A stretch of DNA of 49,962 bases from Pirellula sp. (lineage in GTDB: Bacteria; Planctomycetota; Planctomycetia; Pirellulales; Pirellulaceae): assembly GCA_021300155.1 (NCBI GenBank), contig JAJTID010000062.1:1-49962 (forward strand), written 5' to 3'. The notes beneath the pieces were generated by a model. The model did not search any database and was not told the origin of the DNA. It saw only the letters and a list, made by a program, of their open reading frames with translations. The position numbers were made by a program, and so were the translations under genes. Below, piece after piece: positions 16,434 to 22,819 of the stretch (position 1 is its first letter; every line of letters begins with the position of its first letter).

Positions 16434-17759
16434 ATGAGTGCGGTTGCTGACCAAAATGTAGGTCTAGGCAAATTCGATCGACATGGCTTCGATGATTTCC
16501 TAGCAAAGCGCATCGATCCAACTTGGTTGTCCGATGCACGCAAAGCGGCTTATGCCGAGTTTGAAACGATGGGTTGGCCCAACCCACGAAGCGAAAATTG
16601 GATGCGTTCCGATTTGCGTGGCTTCCGAATCGAAAAATACTCGATTGCACATGAGACTGAAACGCAAACGAAACTCGACGCACCAGTTCATTTGCTGGAA
16701 GGTGTCGAGATCGCAGGTTCCGTTCGCTCCGCAAATGGGATCGTTATCTCGGAAGAACTAGACGAATCGCTCAAGGCCAAAGGGGTTCTGTTTGGCTCGC
16801 TATCTCGATTGAGTCGTGAGAAACCAGAACTCGTGAAGAAGTATCTTCACACGCTGATCGATTCATCGGCAGATCGATTCGCTGCATTGCAGGTGGCGAT
16901 GTGGTCCGACGGATATTTGCTATATGTTCCGCGCAATGTCATCATCGAAAAGCCATTGCACATTCATGCATCCATGACGGAGGGCGGTTCCGATTTGTCG
17001 CATACGCTCGTCATCTTGGAAGAAGGTGCCGAAGCTACAGTCCTAACCGAATGCAGCAGCGTCACAGAGCAAGGAAGTGGAATGTTTTGCGGCGGTGTGG
17101 AATTGATCTTGGGAGCCCGCTCGAACTTGCGTGACGTGAGTTTGCAAGACTGGGGGCAGAAGGTATGGCACTTCGCTCACAAACGAGCCAGTGTTGGACA
17201 AGATGCAACCCTGCAATGGACACTTGCTGCGATGGGCTCTCGCTTTGCTCAAGTAGATCAACAAGTAGAGATGGTCGCTCCAGGGGCGAGAAGCTTTGTG
17301 AACGGAGTGATGTTCACTCGAGATCGTCAGCATTTGACTTACAATACGATTCAGCGTCACTGTGCACCGCATTGCACCAGCGACTTTTTGTACAAGTCGG
17401 TGCTTCAAGACCGTTCGCGAACGGTTTGGAGAGGGATGATCAAAGTCGATGAAGGAGCGGACAAAACAGATGGTTATCAACGAAATGATAATCTGATGCT
17501 CAGCGATGCAGCTCGAGCCGACTCCATTCCAGGTTTGGAGATCAAAGCAGACGATGTGCGATGCACTCACGGCAGTACGAGTGGACGTGTCGACGAAGAG
17601 TTGATCTTCTACGCTCGATCGAGAGGATTCACTCGCCAAGAAGCGATCTTGATGATCGTCACCGGGTTCTTCCAGCAGATCTTCGATCGGATCACGATCG
17701 AGTCCGTACGAGAAGCCCTCGGAAAAGCGATCGCGCGACAAGTTCGACAGTACGAGTAG
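16434..17759 (+). CDS. sufD: Fe-S cluster assembly protein SufD
   Basis: A 441-residue paralogue and partner of SufB in the SufBC2D complex. The SufB/SufD beta-helix core is recognisable (GYLLYVPRNVIIEKPLHI, then VLTECSSV, LRDVSLQDWG). The C-terminal block has SVLQDRSRTVWRGMIKV, NDNLMLSDAARADSIPGLEIKADDV and CTHGSTSGRVDEELIFY; the His in CTHGS matches the conserved SufD histidine at the SufB-SufD interface. The ATG lies one base after the sufB stop, so translation is tightly coupled. An inverted repeat follows the gene and may end or attenuate transcription. Confidence 0.96.
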   Translation: MSAVADQNVGLGKFDRHGFDDFLAKRIDPTWLSDARKAAYAEFETMGWPNPRSENWMRSDLRGFRIEKYSIAHETETQTKLDAPVHLLEGVEIAGSVRSANGIVISEELDESLKAKGVLFGSLSRLSREKPELVKKYLHTLIDSSADRFAALQVAMWSDGYLLYVPRNVIIEKPLHIHASMTEGGSDLSHTLVILEEGAEATVLTECSSVTEQGSGMFCGGVELILGARSNLRDVSLQDWGQKVWHFAHKRASVGQDATLQWTLAAMGSRFAQVDQQVEMVAPGARSFVNGVMFTRDRQHLTYNTIQRHCAPHCTSDFLYKSVLQDRSRTVWRGMIKVDEGADKTDGYQRNDNLMLSDAARADSIPGLEIKADDVRCTHGSTSGRVDEELIFYARSRGFTRQEAILMIVTGFFQQIFDRITIESVREALGKAIARQVRQYE

Positions 17760-17795
17760 TCCGCACGATTTGTCGTTCGATCTTGCCCAGACGGT

Positions 17796-17866
17796 ATCAC
17801 AACCCGAAGCGTGAGCGAGGGACGGAGAATCCCACAGAGAGCCTCGCTCACGCCTCGGGTTGTGAT
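17796..17866. repeat. Second inverted-repeat family, copy B
   Basis: Arms of about 25 bp, beginning ATCACAACCCGAAGCGTGAG and ending CGCCTCGGGTTGTGAT, are nearly perfectly complementary around a 21-base core. It lies within the suf operon between sufD and the Rieske gene, where its RNA hairpin could act as a terminator, attenuator or mRNA-stabilising element. Confidence 0.9.
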
Positions 17867-17943
17867 CAAAAAACCTGGCTCGTGATCAAGAGATTGCAGC
17901 CGTTCATTTACTTGAGAATCCCAAACCCTAGAATTTCCTTATT

Positions 17944-18252
17944 GTGTTTCATTTTGTTTGCGACATAGCTAGCCTCACACCCAACCTCCCCAAGACGATG
18001 GAAGTCGATGACCGATTTGTGGTCGTCACACTCATCGAAGGCGAAGTTTACTGCATCGAAGATTTGTGTACGCATGATGGTGGCACACTTGGCGATGGCG
18101 AAGTGGAAGGTAACTGTATCGCTTGCCCGCGTCACGGTGCAAAATTTGATTTGCGTACGGGAAATGCATTAACCATGCCTGCCACCGAAGCCACCTTGTC
18201 GCATGAGGTAAAGGTAGAAGATGGCAAGGTTTTCGTACAATTGGCAAACTAG
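17944..18252 (+). CDS. Rieske-type [2Fe-2S] ferredoxin in the suf operon
   Basis: A 102-residue soluble electron carrier. Cluster ligands are C42 and H44 in CTHDGG and C61 and H64 in CPRHGAKF, with the standard 16-residue gap. The fold matches biphenyl-dioxygenase-type Rieske ferredoxins. The start is GTG 17944, because the sequence right after it (FVCDIASL) is the conserved first strand. Rieske ferredoxins are often found in suf operons and may supply electrons for cluster assembly or simply be a client; this is inferred. sufT follows after 35 bases. Confidence 0.9.
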   Translation: MFHFVCDIASLTPNLPKTMEVDDRFVVVTLIEGEVYCIEDLCTHDGGTLGDGEVEGNCIACPRHGAKFDLRTGNALTMPATEATLSHEVKVEDGKVFVQLAN

Positions 18253-18287
18253 ATTTATTCCATCAATATCTGATCGATCCCAAAATT

Positions 18288-18602
18288 ATGATTACTGAAG
18301 ACCACGTTCGAGAGCAACTGAAACTAGTCATCGACCCCGAGCTTTTCGTCAACATTGTTGATCTCGGATTGATTTACGTCGTCGACATCCAGCCTGGTGA
18401 AAACGACAAACTGAACGTCAATGTGGAAATGACCATGACCAGTCCGATGTGCCCCGCGGGTCCACAACTCGTGGCGAACAGTCGGCAAGTCATCGAAGCT
18501 ATCGAAGGTGTCGGCGCCGTCGATATCAAGGTCGTGATGGATCCACCATGGACTCCTGAACGAATGACAGAAGACGCTCGCGATCAGTTAGGAATATTCT
18601 AA
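18288..18602 (+). CDS. sufT: SufT / MIP18-family (DUF59) Fe-S maturation protein
   Basis: A 104-residue single-domain protein of the DUF59/MIP18 family. Hallmarks are VIDPELFVNIVDLGLIY near the N-terminus, MTMTSPMCPAGPQL with its conserved Cys, and VVMDPPWTPERMT near the end. SufT proteins help deliver clusters to some target proteins and are regularly found in SUF operons of bacteria without the ISC system. The ATG is 35 bases after the Rieske gene, and the sufE/sufS gene begins five bases after its stop. Confidence 0.95.
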   Translation: MITEDHVREQLKLVIDPELFVNIVDLGLIYVVDIQPGENDKLNVNVEMTMTSPMCPAGPQLVANSRQVIEAIEGVGAVDIKVVMDPPWTPERMTEDARDQLGIF

Positions 18603-18607
18603 AGTTC

Positions 18608-20284
18608 ATGTCCGTTCTCTTGGAAGAACTCATTGAAGAGTTTCAGGATCTGGAGACGCCGGAAGAGCGTATACAGTTCTTGATCGAATTGGGACAGTCA
18701 TTACCAGAATTCCCTAAAGAGTTTTGCACGGAAGAGTTTCGTGTCGTCGGTTGCCAAAGCATGGTCTGGGTCGTTCCTGAATGGGACGGAAAGACGTTTC
18801 AGTTTCAGGCGACGAGCGACGCTCCGATGGTCCGTGGACTTGCAGCAGTGCTGGTATCTGCTTATTCGGGATGCACTGCGCAGGAAGTGGTCGATCTTCC
18901 GATCGAGAAGATTTTCGAGGGACTAAAACTGAAAAGCTTTTTGTCTCCGCTTCGCAGCAACGGATTGAACTCGATGATCAAGCAGATCCGCGAGTACGCT
19001 GCGGGGAAGCTTGCCAGAGTCGCACCAACCTCGCGAGTGGCTGTCAAGAATAGCACCGATTACGGACCTATATCTGGCCATCTTGCAGATATCCGAAGCG
19101 ATTTTCCAGTGCTAATCGGGCATCATAGTTCAGGTTTGCCAGTGGCATATCTGGATAATGCGGCATCATCGCAACGCCCGCAAGTGGTGATCGACGCGAT
19201 GAACTCGGTTTATCAGCAGCACTATGCAAATGTCCATCGTTCCGGTCATGAATGGGCCGGGATGACGACCGAGAAAGTCGAAGCGAGTCGCGTTGCTGTT
19301 CAGCAGTACATCAACGCTTCTTCTCCCGACGAAATCATATTCACCGCAGGAACAACCGCTTCGGTGAATCTAGTTGCTCAGACGTGGGGACGATCGAACC
19401 TGAAGTCTGGCGATGAGATACTGTTGACCGAAATGGAACACCATTCGAACATCGTCCCTTGGCAACAACTCTGTGCTGAACTCGGGTGCGTCATTCGTTG
19501 GATTCCAATTCGCGATGACTATACGCTCGACATGGATGCTTTTCATCGTTTGTTGAATGAGAAGACACGCATTGTCGCGTGCACTGCGGTCTCCAATGTG
19601 TTGGGTACGATCATTCCGATTCGAGAGATCTGCGAAGGAGCTCATCGATGGAATGCCGTTGTTTTGGTCGATGCAGCCCAAGCGGTACCGCACGGCATGT
19701 TGGATGTTATCGAATGGGACGCGGATTTCGTAGTCTTCAGCGGGCATAAGATGTTAGCCAGCACCGGAGTTGGTGTTTGTTATGGCAAGCGTGCGTTGCT
19801 CGAGAAGATGCCGAGTTGGCAAGGGGGCGGAAACATGATCAAGTCGGTGACCTTCGATGGATTCACCGAAGCGGGTCTGCCTCACAAGTTTGAAGCGGGC
19901 ACACCAGCCATTGTAGAGATCATCTCTCTGAAGAGTGCTATCGAGTATTTGGCAACGATTGGATCAGAGCGGATACTAGAGCATGAGAATCTTCTTGCCG
20001 AACGAGCGATCGAGGGATTGTCGACGATTCCCGGGATCCGAATTTTTTCGCCACCGCGAGCAAAGAAGTGTGGCATCGTGTCTTTTGCGATAGATGGTAT
20101 TCATGGTGAACAAATCGCCAGGTTATTGGACGCTCGCGGCATCGCGATTCGAGTGGGGCATCACTGTGCGATGCCATTGCATTCAAAGCTTGGGGTGCCA
20201 GTCACCTGTCGCGCAAGCTTTTATTTTTACAATTCGATCGAAGAAGTCGACCGATTTGTTGCCGCTGTAAAAGATGTCGTGTAG
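18608..20284 (+). CDS. sufS: SufE-SufS fusion: cysteine desulfurase with its sulfur acceptor
   Basis: A 558-residue bifunctional protein. Residues 1-140 are a full SufE domain (LIEEFQDLETPEERIQFLIELG, acceptor Cys49 in VVGCQSMVW, and LSPLRSNGLNSM). After a short linker (about 141-160), residues 165-558 are a SufS-type group II cysteine desulfurase. It shows LDNAASSQRP, the HHSN loop, the PLP lysine K381 in FSGHKMLAS, the catalytic Cys520 in RVGHHCAMP, and CRASFYFYN. SufS takes sulfur from cysteine as a persulfide and SufE passes it to SufB; here both steps are on one chain, so transfer would be intramolecular or within the dimer. It ends the operon and is five bases from sufT. All key residues are present. 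Confidence 0.95.
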   Translation: MSVLLEELIEEFQDLETPEERIQFLIELGQSLPEFPKEFCTEEFRVVGCQSMVWVVPEWDGKTFQFQATSDAPMVRGLAAVLVSAYSGCTAQEVVDLPIEKIFEGLKLKSFLSPLRSNGLNSMIKQIREYAAGKLARVAPTSRVAVKNSTDYGPISGHLADIRSDFPVLIGHHSSGLPVAYLDNAASSQRPQVVIDAMNSVYQQHYANVHRSGHEWAGMTTEKVEASRVAVQQYINASSPDEIIFTAGTTASVNLVAQTWGRSNLKSGDEILLTEMEHHSNIVPWQQLCAELGCVIRWIPIRDDYTLDMDAFHRLLNEKTRIVACTAVSNVLGTIIPIREICEGAHRWNAVVLVDAAQAVPHGMLDVIEWDADFVVFSGHKMLASTGVGVCYGKRALLEKMPSWQGGGNMIKSVTFDGFTEAGLPHKFEAGTPAIVEIISLKSAIEYLATIGSERILEHENLLAERAIEGLSTIPGIRIFSPPRAKKCGIVSFAIDGIHGEQIARLLDARGIAIRVGHHCAMPLHSKLGVPVTCRASFYFYNSIEEVDRFVAAVKDVV

Positions 20285-20317: not shown

Positions 20318-22819
20318 TTAGAATAGAAACGTTTGTGTTTTCGGTAGCGATGGTCGATCCAATTTACTCAGAACTCTGCCTGCGGCAGCGCAACCACTGA
20401 GAAAGGCCCCTTCAACTCTAGAGCCACCAGCCCAGTCGCCACATGCGATAACTGTCGAGCGATGTTGGAAACAATTCGTTGGTACGGCTGTGGAAATTGG
20501 TATCGAATATCGCCAACGGTGCGCCATTGCGATCGTCGGTATCTGCGGTTTCTGTCCAGTGACACGGAAGTATTCTTCTAGCAGCGTATCCATCACGAAC
20601 TCTTGATCCTTTTCGTAGCACTGGGCAGACCAATCGGGTGCAGCATGGATCACTAAAGACTCGCCTTTCGAGTATCGGCCAGGCTTCGTATGGCTTCGAG
20701 CAATCCAACGGACGGCGCCACCGTTGACGAATGCTCCATTCCAATCGCTCGGCAACTGTTCTTCAAATTGAAACATCGCACACCAGCACGGATCGTATCG
20801 GACCGATGCAAGCTGCGATGAAAGAACTGCATCAAACGGGACCAACGACGACGCTTGCGGTGCGGGAATCGCCAAGATCACTTGATCGAAAACGCCCAAA
20901 TCTAAACCATCTGCGGCCATGAGACGCAATCGACTTCCGTCAGGTTCAATGGCGATTACTTGATGATTCAATCGCATTTCTGCATTTTTTAGCAGATGCT
21001 TCGCAATCGAGGTCATGCCCGGAGTGCCGACAAATCGTTCGACCGATGGACGCACGTGGCAATGCCATGAAGGTTCTGCGCTATTCTCATCTCGGTCATA
21101 TGCAACAACGGTCCCCTCCCAAAGTGCCGCTACACCTTGCTCGACCCATGACTGAACGTATCTTCGAAACACAGGATGTCGCACCGTGAAGTACTGCGCT
21201 CCATGATCGAAAGCATGTTCATCGAGATGTCGAGTCGACATGCGTCCACCCATCCCTCGACTCTTGTCGAAAACTGTTACTTGCAGTCCATGGTCAGCAA
21301 GTGTTCGTGCTGCCATCGCACCAGAGATTCCTGCTCCTACCACGGCGATCGTCGGAGGATTTGGTGCTCGATTGCGTTGGATGAGTTGCTTATACTTTTC
21401 GACATTTAGTCGTTGCGCATGTTCATTTGTCGGGCGTGGCCGAATCGTTCCTTGAATTGAAGTCTCTGGCTCAAAGGGACGATCAAATTGCCCCAGACAC
21501 CAGAGAATACCTCCATAGGAACCTGGGTCTCGACCATCGAGCGCATAACGATGGTTCAAGTCGAGCATGTACTTTAACGCACATTGCGGGCTTGGGGTCC
21601 AATTCAAGATAGCTTTGCCCCACGTCATCCTAATATTGTTGTGCAATTCTCCATGCATCAATAACGACTTCTGCGCGACGTTCCACAATGGGTCATCGGA
21701 CTCGCCGCGCGCAAGTTGCTCCCAGGAATAGAGCTTTGCTCGCCGATCCTTCGCGTGTAACTCTAGGGTTTTTCGAGCCCAATCTGGGATAGCGGACCAA
21801 TGATCATGATCGCTGCGATAATGGCAAAATGCATAAGCCAACTCTCTCCAAATCAAGAGCTCGTCTAGGTACTTCTCTGGGCCTTCTCCTTTTTGCTGAG
21901 ATGCTTCGCGTGCGATCCGCATGGGCGAGACCATCCCATAATGCAAATAGGCGGACATCCGACTCGTACCATTGATCAACGGACTGTTCCGAGTCTTTGC
22001 ATATTTGCTTAGCCCTGACTGGCAAAATCGATTCCACCGACTGTAACCGGCGGTCGATCCTCCTTCGGTATCGACGACCGGTCCAACGGTATGATCGATA
22101 TCACATTGAGCAATCCAATCCGCAATACTCGTGAGATTAAGATCGATAGACTTGAATGGTAACGAATCGATGTCAAATGCTCGAACATTTCCTTTCCAAA
22201 GAGGCCATTCATTAGGAACGCGATCTTTGTATTGCCGCTGTGTTGCTTGCCGAAACTCGAATGCTCTCGTGTAGGCCTGGCCAATCGATCGCATCGGAAC
22301 CACGCAAGCAGTGTCTACGGCTACGATGGGAGTTCTGCATTGTCGACATAGAGCTCGAAGGAATGTTGATGAAGGTCGCGTTGGCATATCTTCAGTCACA
22401 GTAACCGACGATGCATCTGCTAACTGCCGTAGATAATCCCCTTGGGTGTCTGATCGTTCCAAGTAGAAAGCATAGGAAATCCCGATTTCAGACATTCTGC
22501 GCTGCACATCTCGAGCACCTTCGAGTATGAACGTATGATGTCGGTCCGAAGCGAAAGGATAACGCTGCGATAAACCGTGGTATACGAGCAATGGTAAATC
22601 CAATTTGATTGCCAAGTGTCGAGCCACATCGAGAGCCGGGTTCTCATCGACTCGAACAGCAGTTCGCATCCAATACAGTACAAAACCAGGTTGGCTGCTG
22701 GAATTACTTGCGGAATGATCAACGGTGCTCTTGCCTGCCGTTCCTGCCGTAACGACGCGTATTCGTTCGTACAAGTGAATAGGAACGTTCTCGAAGCTGA
22801 GTAATTCGGCAATGGACAT
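20318..22819 (-). CDS. Class II CPD photolyase fused to a renalase-like FAD oxidoreductase
   Basis: An 833-residue two-flavin fusion. Residues about 40-470 are a class II DNA photolyase (LYWMRTAVRVDENPALDVA, YLDELLIWRELAYAFCHY, IPDWARKTLELHA, DPLWNVAQ, and the FAD-site block LDGRDPGSYGGILWCLG with DRPF). Such enzymes repair cyclobutane pyrimidine dimers using light. Residues about 485-833 form an NAD(P)/FAD-binding amine-oxidase-like domain resembling renalase, with the dinucleotide motif VVGAGISGAMAARTL, KSRGMGGRMSTR, HGAQYFTVR, and the C-terminal FAD block ACGDWAGGSRVEGAFLSG. Both halves look complete and in frame. The renalase-like part could oxidise NAD(P)H isomers or keep flavin reduced; this is inference. 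The gene converges on the suf operon with 33 bases between stops. Confidence 0.9.
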   Translation of the reverse strand: MSIAELLSFENVPIHLYERIRVVTAGTAGKSTVDHSASNSSSQPGFVLYWMRTAVRVDENPALDVARHLAIKLDLPLLVYHGLSQRYPFASDRHHTFILEGARDVQRRMSEIGISYAFYLERSDTQGDYLRQLADASSVTVTEDMPTRPSSTFLRALCRQCRTPIVAVDTACVVPMRSIGQAYTRAFEFRQATQRQYKDRVPNEWPLWKGNVRAFDIDSLPFKSIDLNLTSIADWIAQCDIDHTVGPVVDTEGGSTAGYSRWNRFCQSGLSKYAKTRNSPLINGTSRMSAYLHYGMVSPMRIAREASQQKGEGPEKYLDELLIWRELAYAFCHYRSDHDHWSAIPDWARKTLELHAKDRRAKLYSWEQLARGESDDPLWNVAQKSLLMHGELHNNIRMTWGKAILNWTPSPQCALKYMLDLNHRYALDGRDPGSYGGILWCLGQFDRPFEPETSIQGTIRPRPTNEHAQRLNVEKYKQLIQRNRAPNPPTIAVVGAGISGAMAARTLADHGLQVTVFDKSRGMGGRMSTRHLDEHAFDHGAQYFTVRHPVFRRYVQSWVEQGVAALWEGTVVAYDRDENSAEPSWHCHVRPSVERFVGTPGMTSIAKHLLKNAEMRLNHQVIAIEPDGSRLRLMAADGLDLGVFDQVILAIPAPQASSLVPFDAVLSSQLASVRYDPCWCAMFQFEEQLPSDWNGAFVNGGAVRWIARSHTKPGRYSKGESLVIHAAPDWSAQCYEKDQEFVMDTLLEEYFRVTGQKPQIPTIAMAHRWRYSIPISTAVPTNCFQHRSTVIACGDWAGGSRVEGAFLSGCAAAGRVLSKLDRPSLPKTQTFLF

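What the first reader, a model, noticed from the sequence alone, without database searches (positions are those of the whole stretch)
20318..22819. Photolyase fused to a renalase-like FAD oxidoreductase
One uninterrupted 833-codon frame encodes a complete class II photolyase (blocks such as YLDELLIWRELAY and LDGRDPGSYGGIL) and a complete renalase-like dinucleotide-binding oxidoreductase (VVGAGISGAMAARTL, ACGDWAGGSR). A photolyase needs its FAD fully reduced, so a covalently attached NAD(P)H/FAD domain could act as a built-in reductant or remove inactive flavin states. The fused domain could also recognise a damaged cofactor.
Basis: partly seen in the sequence, partly recalled or inferred. Interest (0 to 1): 0.75.

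Follow-up and report, generated by a model that had tools for sequence, protein, structure and literature searches.

The report
Photolyase-renalase fusion with clamp-like tail
A conserved planctomycete protein joins a light-driven DNA repair enzyme to an enzyme type that cleans up damaged NAD(P)H, and many relatives end in a short peptide like those that dock onto the DNA replication clamp, which suggests a photolyase recruited to the replication machinery.

Summary
The fusion is real. One 833-codon frame on the MINUS strand (22819 to 20318) encodes a class II photolyase (residues ~38-478) and a complete bacterial-type renalase (~490-820). It is not an assembly artefact: 22 of 22 extracted relatives are single fused frames. 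In Pirellulaceae, 125 of 241 genomes match at E<=1e-100. Marine archaea carry it too.

The proposed NAD(P)H reductant role is not supported. Human renalase is inactive on normal 1,4-NAD(P)H and oxidises the 1,2 and 1,6 isomers (PMC7660482). Fourteen archaeal fusions have lost the GGR motif of the second half (0 of 14 keep it), yet their photolyase key residues are intact (14 of 14).

Outside the finding: 33 of 71 bacterial fusions end in Q-x-x-[LM]-F, a beta-clamp-like peptide, against 0 of 29 separate renalases, 4 of 34 separate class II photolyases, and 1 of 209 background frames, the window gene itself. Archaeal versions end in PIP-like peptides resembling FEN1 tails of the same class.

Best reading: a photolyase with a cofactor-cleaning module and a clamp-docking tail. 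All three functions are inferred, none measured.

The parts
20318..22819 (-). whole fused gene, 833 codons, ATG at 22819, stop at 20318-20320
21386..22708 (-). class II photolyase half, residues ~38-478
   Evidence: TIGR00591 328 bits, E 1e-97; MmCPDII E ~2e-58
21500..21685 (-). photolyase catalytic segment, residues 379-440: W379, W400, W407, N422, W440 (aligned to MmCPDII W360/W381/W388/N403/W421) and the fused-type signature N395/T399
   Evidence: alignment, conservation; MmCPDII residue numbers and roles are recalled
21353..21451 (-). short linker, residues 457-489, with R460, R462, R470 invariant in 23 of 23
20360..21352 (-). renalase-like FAD domain, residues ~490-820 (GAGISG, GGRMST, DHGAQYF, H725, W769, ACGDWAGGSRVEGAFLSG)
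20321..20335 (-). C-terminal QTFLF, residues 829-833: candidate sliding-clamp-binding peptide at the extreme C-terminus, low model confidence (likely disordered)
   Evidence: residues 821-833 pLDDT under 50, block means 33 and 26

Best explanation
The protein is a light-driven CPD photolyase of a distinct class II subfamily that carries two C-terminal additions. (1) A renalase-type FAD oxidase, which most likely oxidises the inhibitory 1,2- and 1,6-dihydro isomers of NAD(P)H, formed by radical or photochemical reduction, back to NAD(P)+ using O2. (2) In many members, a disordered C-terminal peptide (Q-x-x-L-F in bacteria; Q-x-x-L-F-like or Q-x-x-L-x-x-W in archaea) that docks the protein on the sliding clamp (beta-clamp or PCNA), so that repair is focused on DNA being replicated. 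The fusion bundles two repairs of light damage, of DNA and of the nicotinamide cofactor. Shown: the fused frame, its conservation, intact key residues of both halves in bacteria, tail enrichment, loss of the FAD motifs in a set of archaeal members. Inferred: all three activities, clamp binding, and the isomers as substrate.
For: Photolyase: W379, W400, N422 in 71 of 71 bacterial and 39 of 39 archaeal fused proteins; W407 in 67 of 71 and 38 of 39. 7 of 23 fused-gene genomes show no second class II photolyase at E<=1e-10, so the fused one may be their only one. Renalase: 33-34% identity and TM 0.94-0.95 to bacterial renalase chains whose titles name NADH, NADPH and NAD+ complexes; H725 in 61 of 71 and W769 in 68 of 71, against 23 of 29 and 29 of 29 in separate renalases. 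The renalase reaction, and the inactivity of the human enzyme on 1,4-NAD(P)H: PMC7660482 and PMC8534055 (passages). Light link: separate renalases on Pseudomonadota plasmids have a photolyase-family gene within 7 kb in 5 of 10 loci opened, of 81 matching records (three genera). Clamp: Q..[LM]F in the last 12 residues in 33 of 71 bacterial fusions, 0 of 29 separate renalases, 4 of 34 separate class II photolyases, 1 of 209 background frames, the window gene itself. For the 70 without the window (32 hits), 1000 shuffles of the last 40 residues give mean 0.14, maximum 2, and shuffles of the last 12 alone mean 0.73, maximum 5. 13 of 71 meet the stricter beta-clamp definition of PMC11139829 (passages; counts). 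FEN1-like proteins of the same archaeal class end in QTSLFSF or a close variant in 11 of 12 loci read. The tail is kept in 13 of the 14 archaeal proteins with a decayed renalase half that were measured.
Against: No activity or binding was measured. 38 of 71 bacterial fusions lack the Q..[LM]F tail, including most of those from outside Pirellulaceae. The window tail QTFLF has Thr where the clamp consensus prefers an aliphatic residue. [LM]F in the last 10 residues occurs in 16 of 34 separate class II photolyases too, against 39 of 70 fusions, so the ending is not exclusive to fusions. Archaeal tails often end in L, V, I or M instead of F; the strict Q..[LM]F is met by 11 of 38. In planctomycetes only 1 of 20 separate renalases lies near a photolyase detectable with this protein. 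In the 16 archaeal renalase halves compared, D538 is replaced in all, and Q542 and Y543 are not kept among the commonest residues, so the same reaction is doubtful there. L118, a further short archaeal form left out of the 14, also lacks the tail.
Confidence: 0.5

Rival explanations
1. The renalase-like half is a dedicated reductase: it takes hydride from NAD(P)H and passes electrons to the photolyase FAD to keep it fully reduced.
For: Covalent linkage with a short linker holding three invariant Arg; renalase crystal entries name NADH and NADPH complexes (titles of 4zcc and 5krq).
Against: Human renalase is inactive on 1,4-NAD(P)H (PMC7660482, passages). Archaeal fusions that lost the FAD motifs keep the photolyase key residues. 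16 of 23 fused-gene genomes also have a separate class II photolyase without this domain.
Confidence: 0.12
2. The renalase half is only a structural spacer or a domain in decay; the function is photolyase plus tail, and the conserved renalase residues are leftover.
For: Decay in a set of archaeal members with the tail mostly kept; far fewer invariant positions in the second half than in the first across 23 fused proteins.
Against: In bacteria the renalase signature is kept about as well as in separate renalases: D538 71 of 71, G525-R526 71 of 71, W769 68 of 71, H725 61 of 71.
Confidence: 0.15
3. The fused protein is a light sensor or cryptochrome-like regulator, not a repair enzyme.
For: 16 of 23 fused-gene genomes also have a separate class II photolyase; N395/T399 replace Tyr/Leu(Val) of the separate enzymes in the catalytic segment.
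Against: W379, W400 and N422 are invariant and W407 and W440 nearly so (67 and 68 of 71); 7 of 23 genomes have no other class II photolyase found; a clamp-like tail fits repair better than signalling.
Confidence: 0.12
4. The C-terminal QxxLF is not a clamp motif but a degron or a packing peptide shared by descent.
For: Related sequences share tails; at 55% identity only 8 of 23 clusters have any member with the motif.
Against: Q and LF recur while flanks, middle letters and distance from the domain vary; the motif is nearly absent elsewhere in the proteins (1 of 4772 windows); archaeal members carry PIP-like forms like those of FEN1 in the same class.
Confidence: 0.25

Closest known systems
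Class II CPD photolyase (Methanosarcina mazei MmCPDII, 2xry/8oet; plant 3umv)
   Same: Whole-domain similarity, fold, key tryptophans, N403 equivalent and W421 equivalent align (residue numbers recalled).
   Different: Separate branch from 34 separate class II photolyases (33 planctomycete, 1 archaeal; SH-aLRT 100, quick tree); N395/T399 instead of Tyr/Leu(Val); extra C-terminal domain and tail.
Bacterial renalase (3kkj from P. syringae by its title; 4zcc/4zcd/5krq, organism recalled as P. phaseolicola)
   Same: 33-34% identity over the whole domain, TM 0.94-0.95, FAD motifs, H725 and W769.
   Different: Fused to a photolyase; 0 of 29 separate renalases end in the QxxLF peptide.
Human renalase (3qj4)
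   Same: Same fold, TM 0.81; its known substrates are 1,2-/1,6-NAD(P)H (PMC7660482).
   Different: Only 22-23% identical, single domain.
beta-clamp-binding motifs and PCNA-binding (PIP) boxes
   Same: Q-x-x-L-F at a likely disordered C-terminus; QLDLF and QLELF in some relatives, QLDLF being the consensus peptide in PMC11139829; PIP-like Q-x-x-L-x-x-W in some archaeal members.
   Different: Position 2 is often not aliphatic; two literature searches listed no photolyase with such a motif.

Membership tests
Class II CPD photolyase | class II profile match over the whole domain | tested here: met
   TIGR00591 over 38-478, E 1e-97, but 328 bits is below the curated cut-off 550; the separate class II enzyme of the same genome also falls below it (354 bits, stretch trimmed by me)
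Class II CPD photolyase | electron-transfer tryptophans and the Asn at flavin N5 | tested here: met
   W379, W400, N422 in 71 of 71; W407 in 67 of 71; roles and MmCPDII numbers recalled
Class II CPD photolyase | light-dependent CPD repair | not testable with these tools
   needs purified protein or complementation
Renalase | full-length similarity and fold | tested here: met
   E 2e-55 over residues ~491-820, TM 0.95
Renalase | FAD and active-site residues | tested here: met
   GxGxxG, GGR, DHGAQY, H725, W769 and GDW are present in the window protein; active-site roles recalled
Renalase | oxidation of 1,2-/1,6-NAD(P)H, not of 1,4-NAD(P)H | not testable with these tools
   biochemistry needed
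beta-clamp client (clamp-binding motif) | Q-aliphatic-x-[L/M]-[F/L] or the hexamer form | tested here: inconclusive
   the window's QTFLF fails at position 2 only; 13 of 71 fused bacterial proteins meet it fully; tail of low confidence in the model
beta-clamp client (clamp-binding motif) | binds the clamp | not testable with these tools
   needs a binding assay
NAD(P)H:flavin reductase partner of photolyase | uses 1,4-NAD(P)H to reduce another flavin | not testable with these tools
   known human renalase chemistry argues against it (PMC7660482)

The most novel reading that the evidence does not exclude
A clamp-riding photolyase that is powered by cofactor waste: its renalase half takes hydride from light-damaged 1,2-/1,6-NAD(P)H and, instead of giving the electrons to O2, passes them to the photolyase FAD. 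Removing a metabolic poison would then charge DNA repair at the replication fork, and the docking peptide would be of the beta-clamp or PCNA type according to the domain of life.
Probability: 0.06. Interest if true: 0.88.

Novelty: new variant of a known kind. Interest (0 to 1): 0.62.

Why it matters
Photolyases are usually pictured as free-roaming enzymes that find dimers by diffusion (general knowledge, no call). A sliding-clamp peptide on a photolyase family would link photoreactivation to replication, and it is cheap to test. The fusion, together with photolyase neighbours of renalase in some Pseudomonadota, also gives bacterial renalase a biological setting: defence against light damage, with nicotinamide isomers as the likely lesion. 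The archaeal members that lost the flavin motifs but mostly kept the tail are a natural experiment that separates the two additions.

Tried and rejected
Assembly error or chance: rejected, 22 of 22 relatives fused. Mobile or viral origin: plasmids 81 records match, none covers 80% of the query; phages 2 weak photolyase hits; viral contigs none. Conserved neighbourhood: eight window neighbour frames have no tblastn match (E<=1e-8) in seven relatives' loci L008-L014 (L011 starts close to the gene, so one flank is short). Renalase-photolyase adjacency in planctomycetes: 1 of 20 (G365), and that photolyase has HNY, the separate type; the probe was the fused photolyase half, so remote photolyase classes may be missed. 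Origin of the fusion: renalase halves of fused and separate proteins mix in the quick tree (8 changes), one fused clade is not rejected (AU p 0.327); one fusion event is possible, not shown. Inter-flavin distance: not obtained (only ten sequences in that alignment). Pol IV as a bacterial clamp control: 9 of 13 genomes had a match; RQLDLL is seen in L216 (window genome) and RQLHLL in L215, the other 7 of 9 show no such motif in the last 40 residues printed, so this control is weak.

Rows dropped: of 76 bacterial fused rows, 6 with identical ends (70, plus the window = 71); of 40 archaeal rows, 2 open at a contig end (38; these still include a photolyase-only protein L119, a piece L114 and one with masked letters L068); of 31 separate-renalase loci, L077 gave no row under my filter and one was a duplicate (29); of 35 separate photolyases, one duplicate (34). 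The 14 short archaeal forms leave out L118, whose masked letters defeated my cut. In tree rows, those covering under 60% of a half were left out, so only 16 of the archaeal renalase halves are.

Full report
What is there. The finding's frame is real but lies on the minus strand, ATG at 22819 and stop at 20318-20320. It encodes 833 residues. Residues 38-478 match the class II photolyase profile (TIGR00591, 328 bits, E 1e-97, below the curated cut-off of 550), and residues ~490-820 match bacterial renalase by sequence (3kkj, 4zcc, E ~1e-54). A model built from ten sequences has mean pLDDT 73. Foldseek puts its second half on bacterial renalase at TM 0.94-0.95 and its first half on class II photolyases at 0.66-0.70 with rmsd ~8 A. 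Residues 385-486 are mostly at pLDDT 30-50, so the distance between the flavins was not measured.

It is a family. Nine fused relatives came from the genome collection (the tenth hit, L017, is a short Rossmann match): six Pirellulaceae-type records, one Phycisphaerales and two archaea. In 392 planctomycete genomes, 14 (the window's included) show a hit across both halves. In the window's family, 125 of 241 genomes match at E<=1e-100 (some of these hits are cut by contig ends or cover one half). In the class of the Phycisphaerales member it is rare, 8 of 248. In the class of archaeon G392, 89 of 145 genomes match at E<=1e-15, fused and separate photolyases together. All 22 relatives extracted are single open frames. 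In a quick tree the photolyase halves of 71 bacterial and 39 archaeal fused proteins lie on one side of a branch against 34 separate class II photolyases (SH-aLRT 100; the program warns of a long-branch join between two fused rows and the separate set). The archaeal ones form one clade (100). The renalase halves do not resolve as neatly, but one fused clade is not rejected (AU p 0.327).

The photolyase half looks active. The positions aligned to the MmCPDII electron-transfer tryptophans and the flavin-contacting Asn are W379 and W400 (71 of 71 bacterial fused, 39 of 39 archaeal), W407 (67 of 71, 38 of 39) and N422 (all) (MmCPDII roles and numbers are recalled). Two positions distinguish the fused subfamily from the separate enzymes: N395 (65 of 71; 39 of 39) against Tyr (34 of 34), and T399 (69 of 71; 39 of 39) against Leu or Val (31 and 3 of 34). 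16 of 23 fused-gene genomes have a second, separate class II photolyase; 7 of 23 have none at E<=1e-10.

The renalase half looks like a working renalase in bacteria. G525-R526 and D538 are kept in 71 of 71, W769 in 68 and H725 in 61, rates like those of separate renalases (W769 29 of 29, H725 23 of 29). [quoted passage not shown] the reaction also in PMC8534055, passages). A bacterial renalase with 2- and 6-dihydro-NAD(P) oxidase activity is known to me here only as a cited title (Hoag 2015, seen). A simple NAD(P)H-to-photolyase reductase is therefore unlikely.

A light setting for renalase. Ten Pseudomonadota plasmid loci with a separate renalase were opened, of 81 records that match either half. 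A photolyase-family gene lies within 7 kb in 5 of 10: directly downstream and overlapping in two Asticcacaulis loci (PF03441), beside folE in Novosphingobium (PF04244), and about 5 kb off in two Burkholderia loci (an annotated photolyase; a tblastn match E 7e-7). That is three genera. Two more loci have folE (Sphingobium; Rhizobium with a ChrR-type anti-sigma factor) and one has bacteriorhodopsin with a retinal-forming dioxygenase; Paracoccus and Sphingomonas showed none of these. In Pseudomonas a light-regulated phrB cluster holds a FAD-dependent oxidoreductase (PMC9758184, passages), but I did not establish that it is a renalase. In planctomycetes separate renalases are not near such photolyases (1 of 20).

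The C-terminal tail. Reading the ends of the fused proteins showed QTFLF (window), QGLLF, QLTLF, QLQLF, QASLF, QLDLF, QLELF and so on. Q..[LM]F within the last 12 residues occurs in 32 of 70 unique bacterial fusions (33 of 71 with the window). Shuffles of the last 40 residues give mean 0.14 and maximum 2 in 1000; shuffles of the last 12 alone give mean 0.73 and maximum 5; internal windows 1 of 4772. Controls: separate renalases 0 of 29, separate class II photolyases 4 of 34, long frames from 20 planctomycete loci and the window 1 of 209, that one being this gene. The looser [LM]F in the last 10 residues is found in 39 of 70 fusions but also in 16 of 34 separate class II photolyases and 0 of 29 renalases. 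The beta-clamp review PMC11139829 (passages) gives Q-aliphatic-x-[L/M]-[F/L] and a hexamer form; 13 of 71 meet this fully, the window does not at position 2. By clusters of 60% identity, 14 of 37 have a member with the motif. In archaea 31 of 38 end in Q-x-x-hydrophobic-hydrophobic or Q-x-x-hydrophobic-x-x-aromatic/His forms; the strict Q..[LM]F is met by 11 of 38. FEN1 is a PIP-box protein (PMC7776575, passages). A FEN1 search in 14 archaeal genomes matched 12, all below the profile's curated cut-off though at E 1e-77 or better. Of these 12, nine end in QTSLFSF(DG) or QPSLFDF, two in KPTLFDF, and one was not read correctly. Residues 821-833 of the window protein are at pLDDT under 50.

A natural experiment. 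In 14 archaeal proteins of 613-678 residues the renalase half has shrunk to 149-204 residues. GxGxx[GA] is left in 2 of 14 and GGR in 0 of 14, while 19 of 19 long archaeal forms keep both. The remnant is still related to the long form (profile comparison 98% probability over the first 109 columns, which include the linker). 13 of 14 end in Q-x-[KR]-L-[FVI]; L107 does not, nor does L118, a fifteenth short form left out of the set. W379, W400, W407, N422 and W440 are intact in 14 of 14. So these photolyases seem to manage without the second flavin, and the tail appears to have a value of its own.

Literature. No paper in the held library contains both 'photolyase' and 'renalase'. Searches on class II photolyase fusions, photolyase with amine oxidase, fusion protein or marine group II, photolyase with sliding clamp, clamp-binding motif, PIP box or dnaN and photolyase with Rhodopirellula listed nothing that by title and abstract start describes this protein or a photolyase-clamp contact; only the listed papers were seen. 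A survey of fusions in Archaea (PMC11237513) does not mention photolyase (text search). Most subscription papers are not held, so this is not proof of absence.

Verdict. The fusion is a widespread family with two known halves, and it is probably in databases under automatic names (not checked). What is new here is the renalase assignment with its known chemistry, the distinct photolyase subfamily shared by planctomycetes and marine archaea, and above all the clamp-like tail with its archaeal counterpart.

Noticed in passing
window 18608-20284 (+): One 558-codon frame reads by eye as SufE fused to a SufS cysteine desulfurase, downstream of a SufD-like frame, a Rieske-type frame and a DUF59-like frame (16434-18602); names recalled from the sequence, no family search run.
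   Followed up: no
L041, L044, L183, L185 (separate planctomycete class II photolyases): These end in QG[AQS]LFD, so a clamp-like tail may have arisen on separate class II photolyases too; 16 of 34 have [LM]F in the last 10 residues.
   Followed up: partly
L102-L118 (archaea of the class of G392): In 14 measured members the renalase half has decayed to a 149-204 residue remnant mostly without FAD motifs, while 13 of 14 keep the terminal Qx[KR]L[FVI].
   Followed up: yes
L074:8095-9741 (-): A 548-codon frame without a Pfam match lies between a Burkholderia plasmid renalase and a MerR regulator, with no gene listed in the plasmid table.
   Followed up: no
G707 and G693: These Pirellulaceae genomes carry two hits each to the fused protein at E<=1e-100 in different places, possibly paralogues.
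   Followed up: no
L072, L074, L076, L078, L080: A DUF3429 gene recurs next to or near separate renalases in alpha- and betaproteobacterial plasmids, an unexplained partner of these clusters.
   Followed up: no
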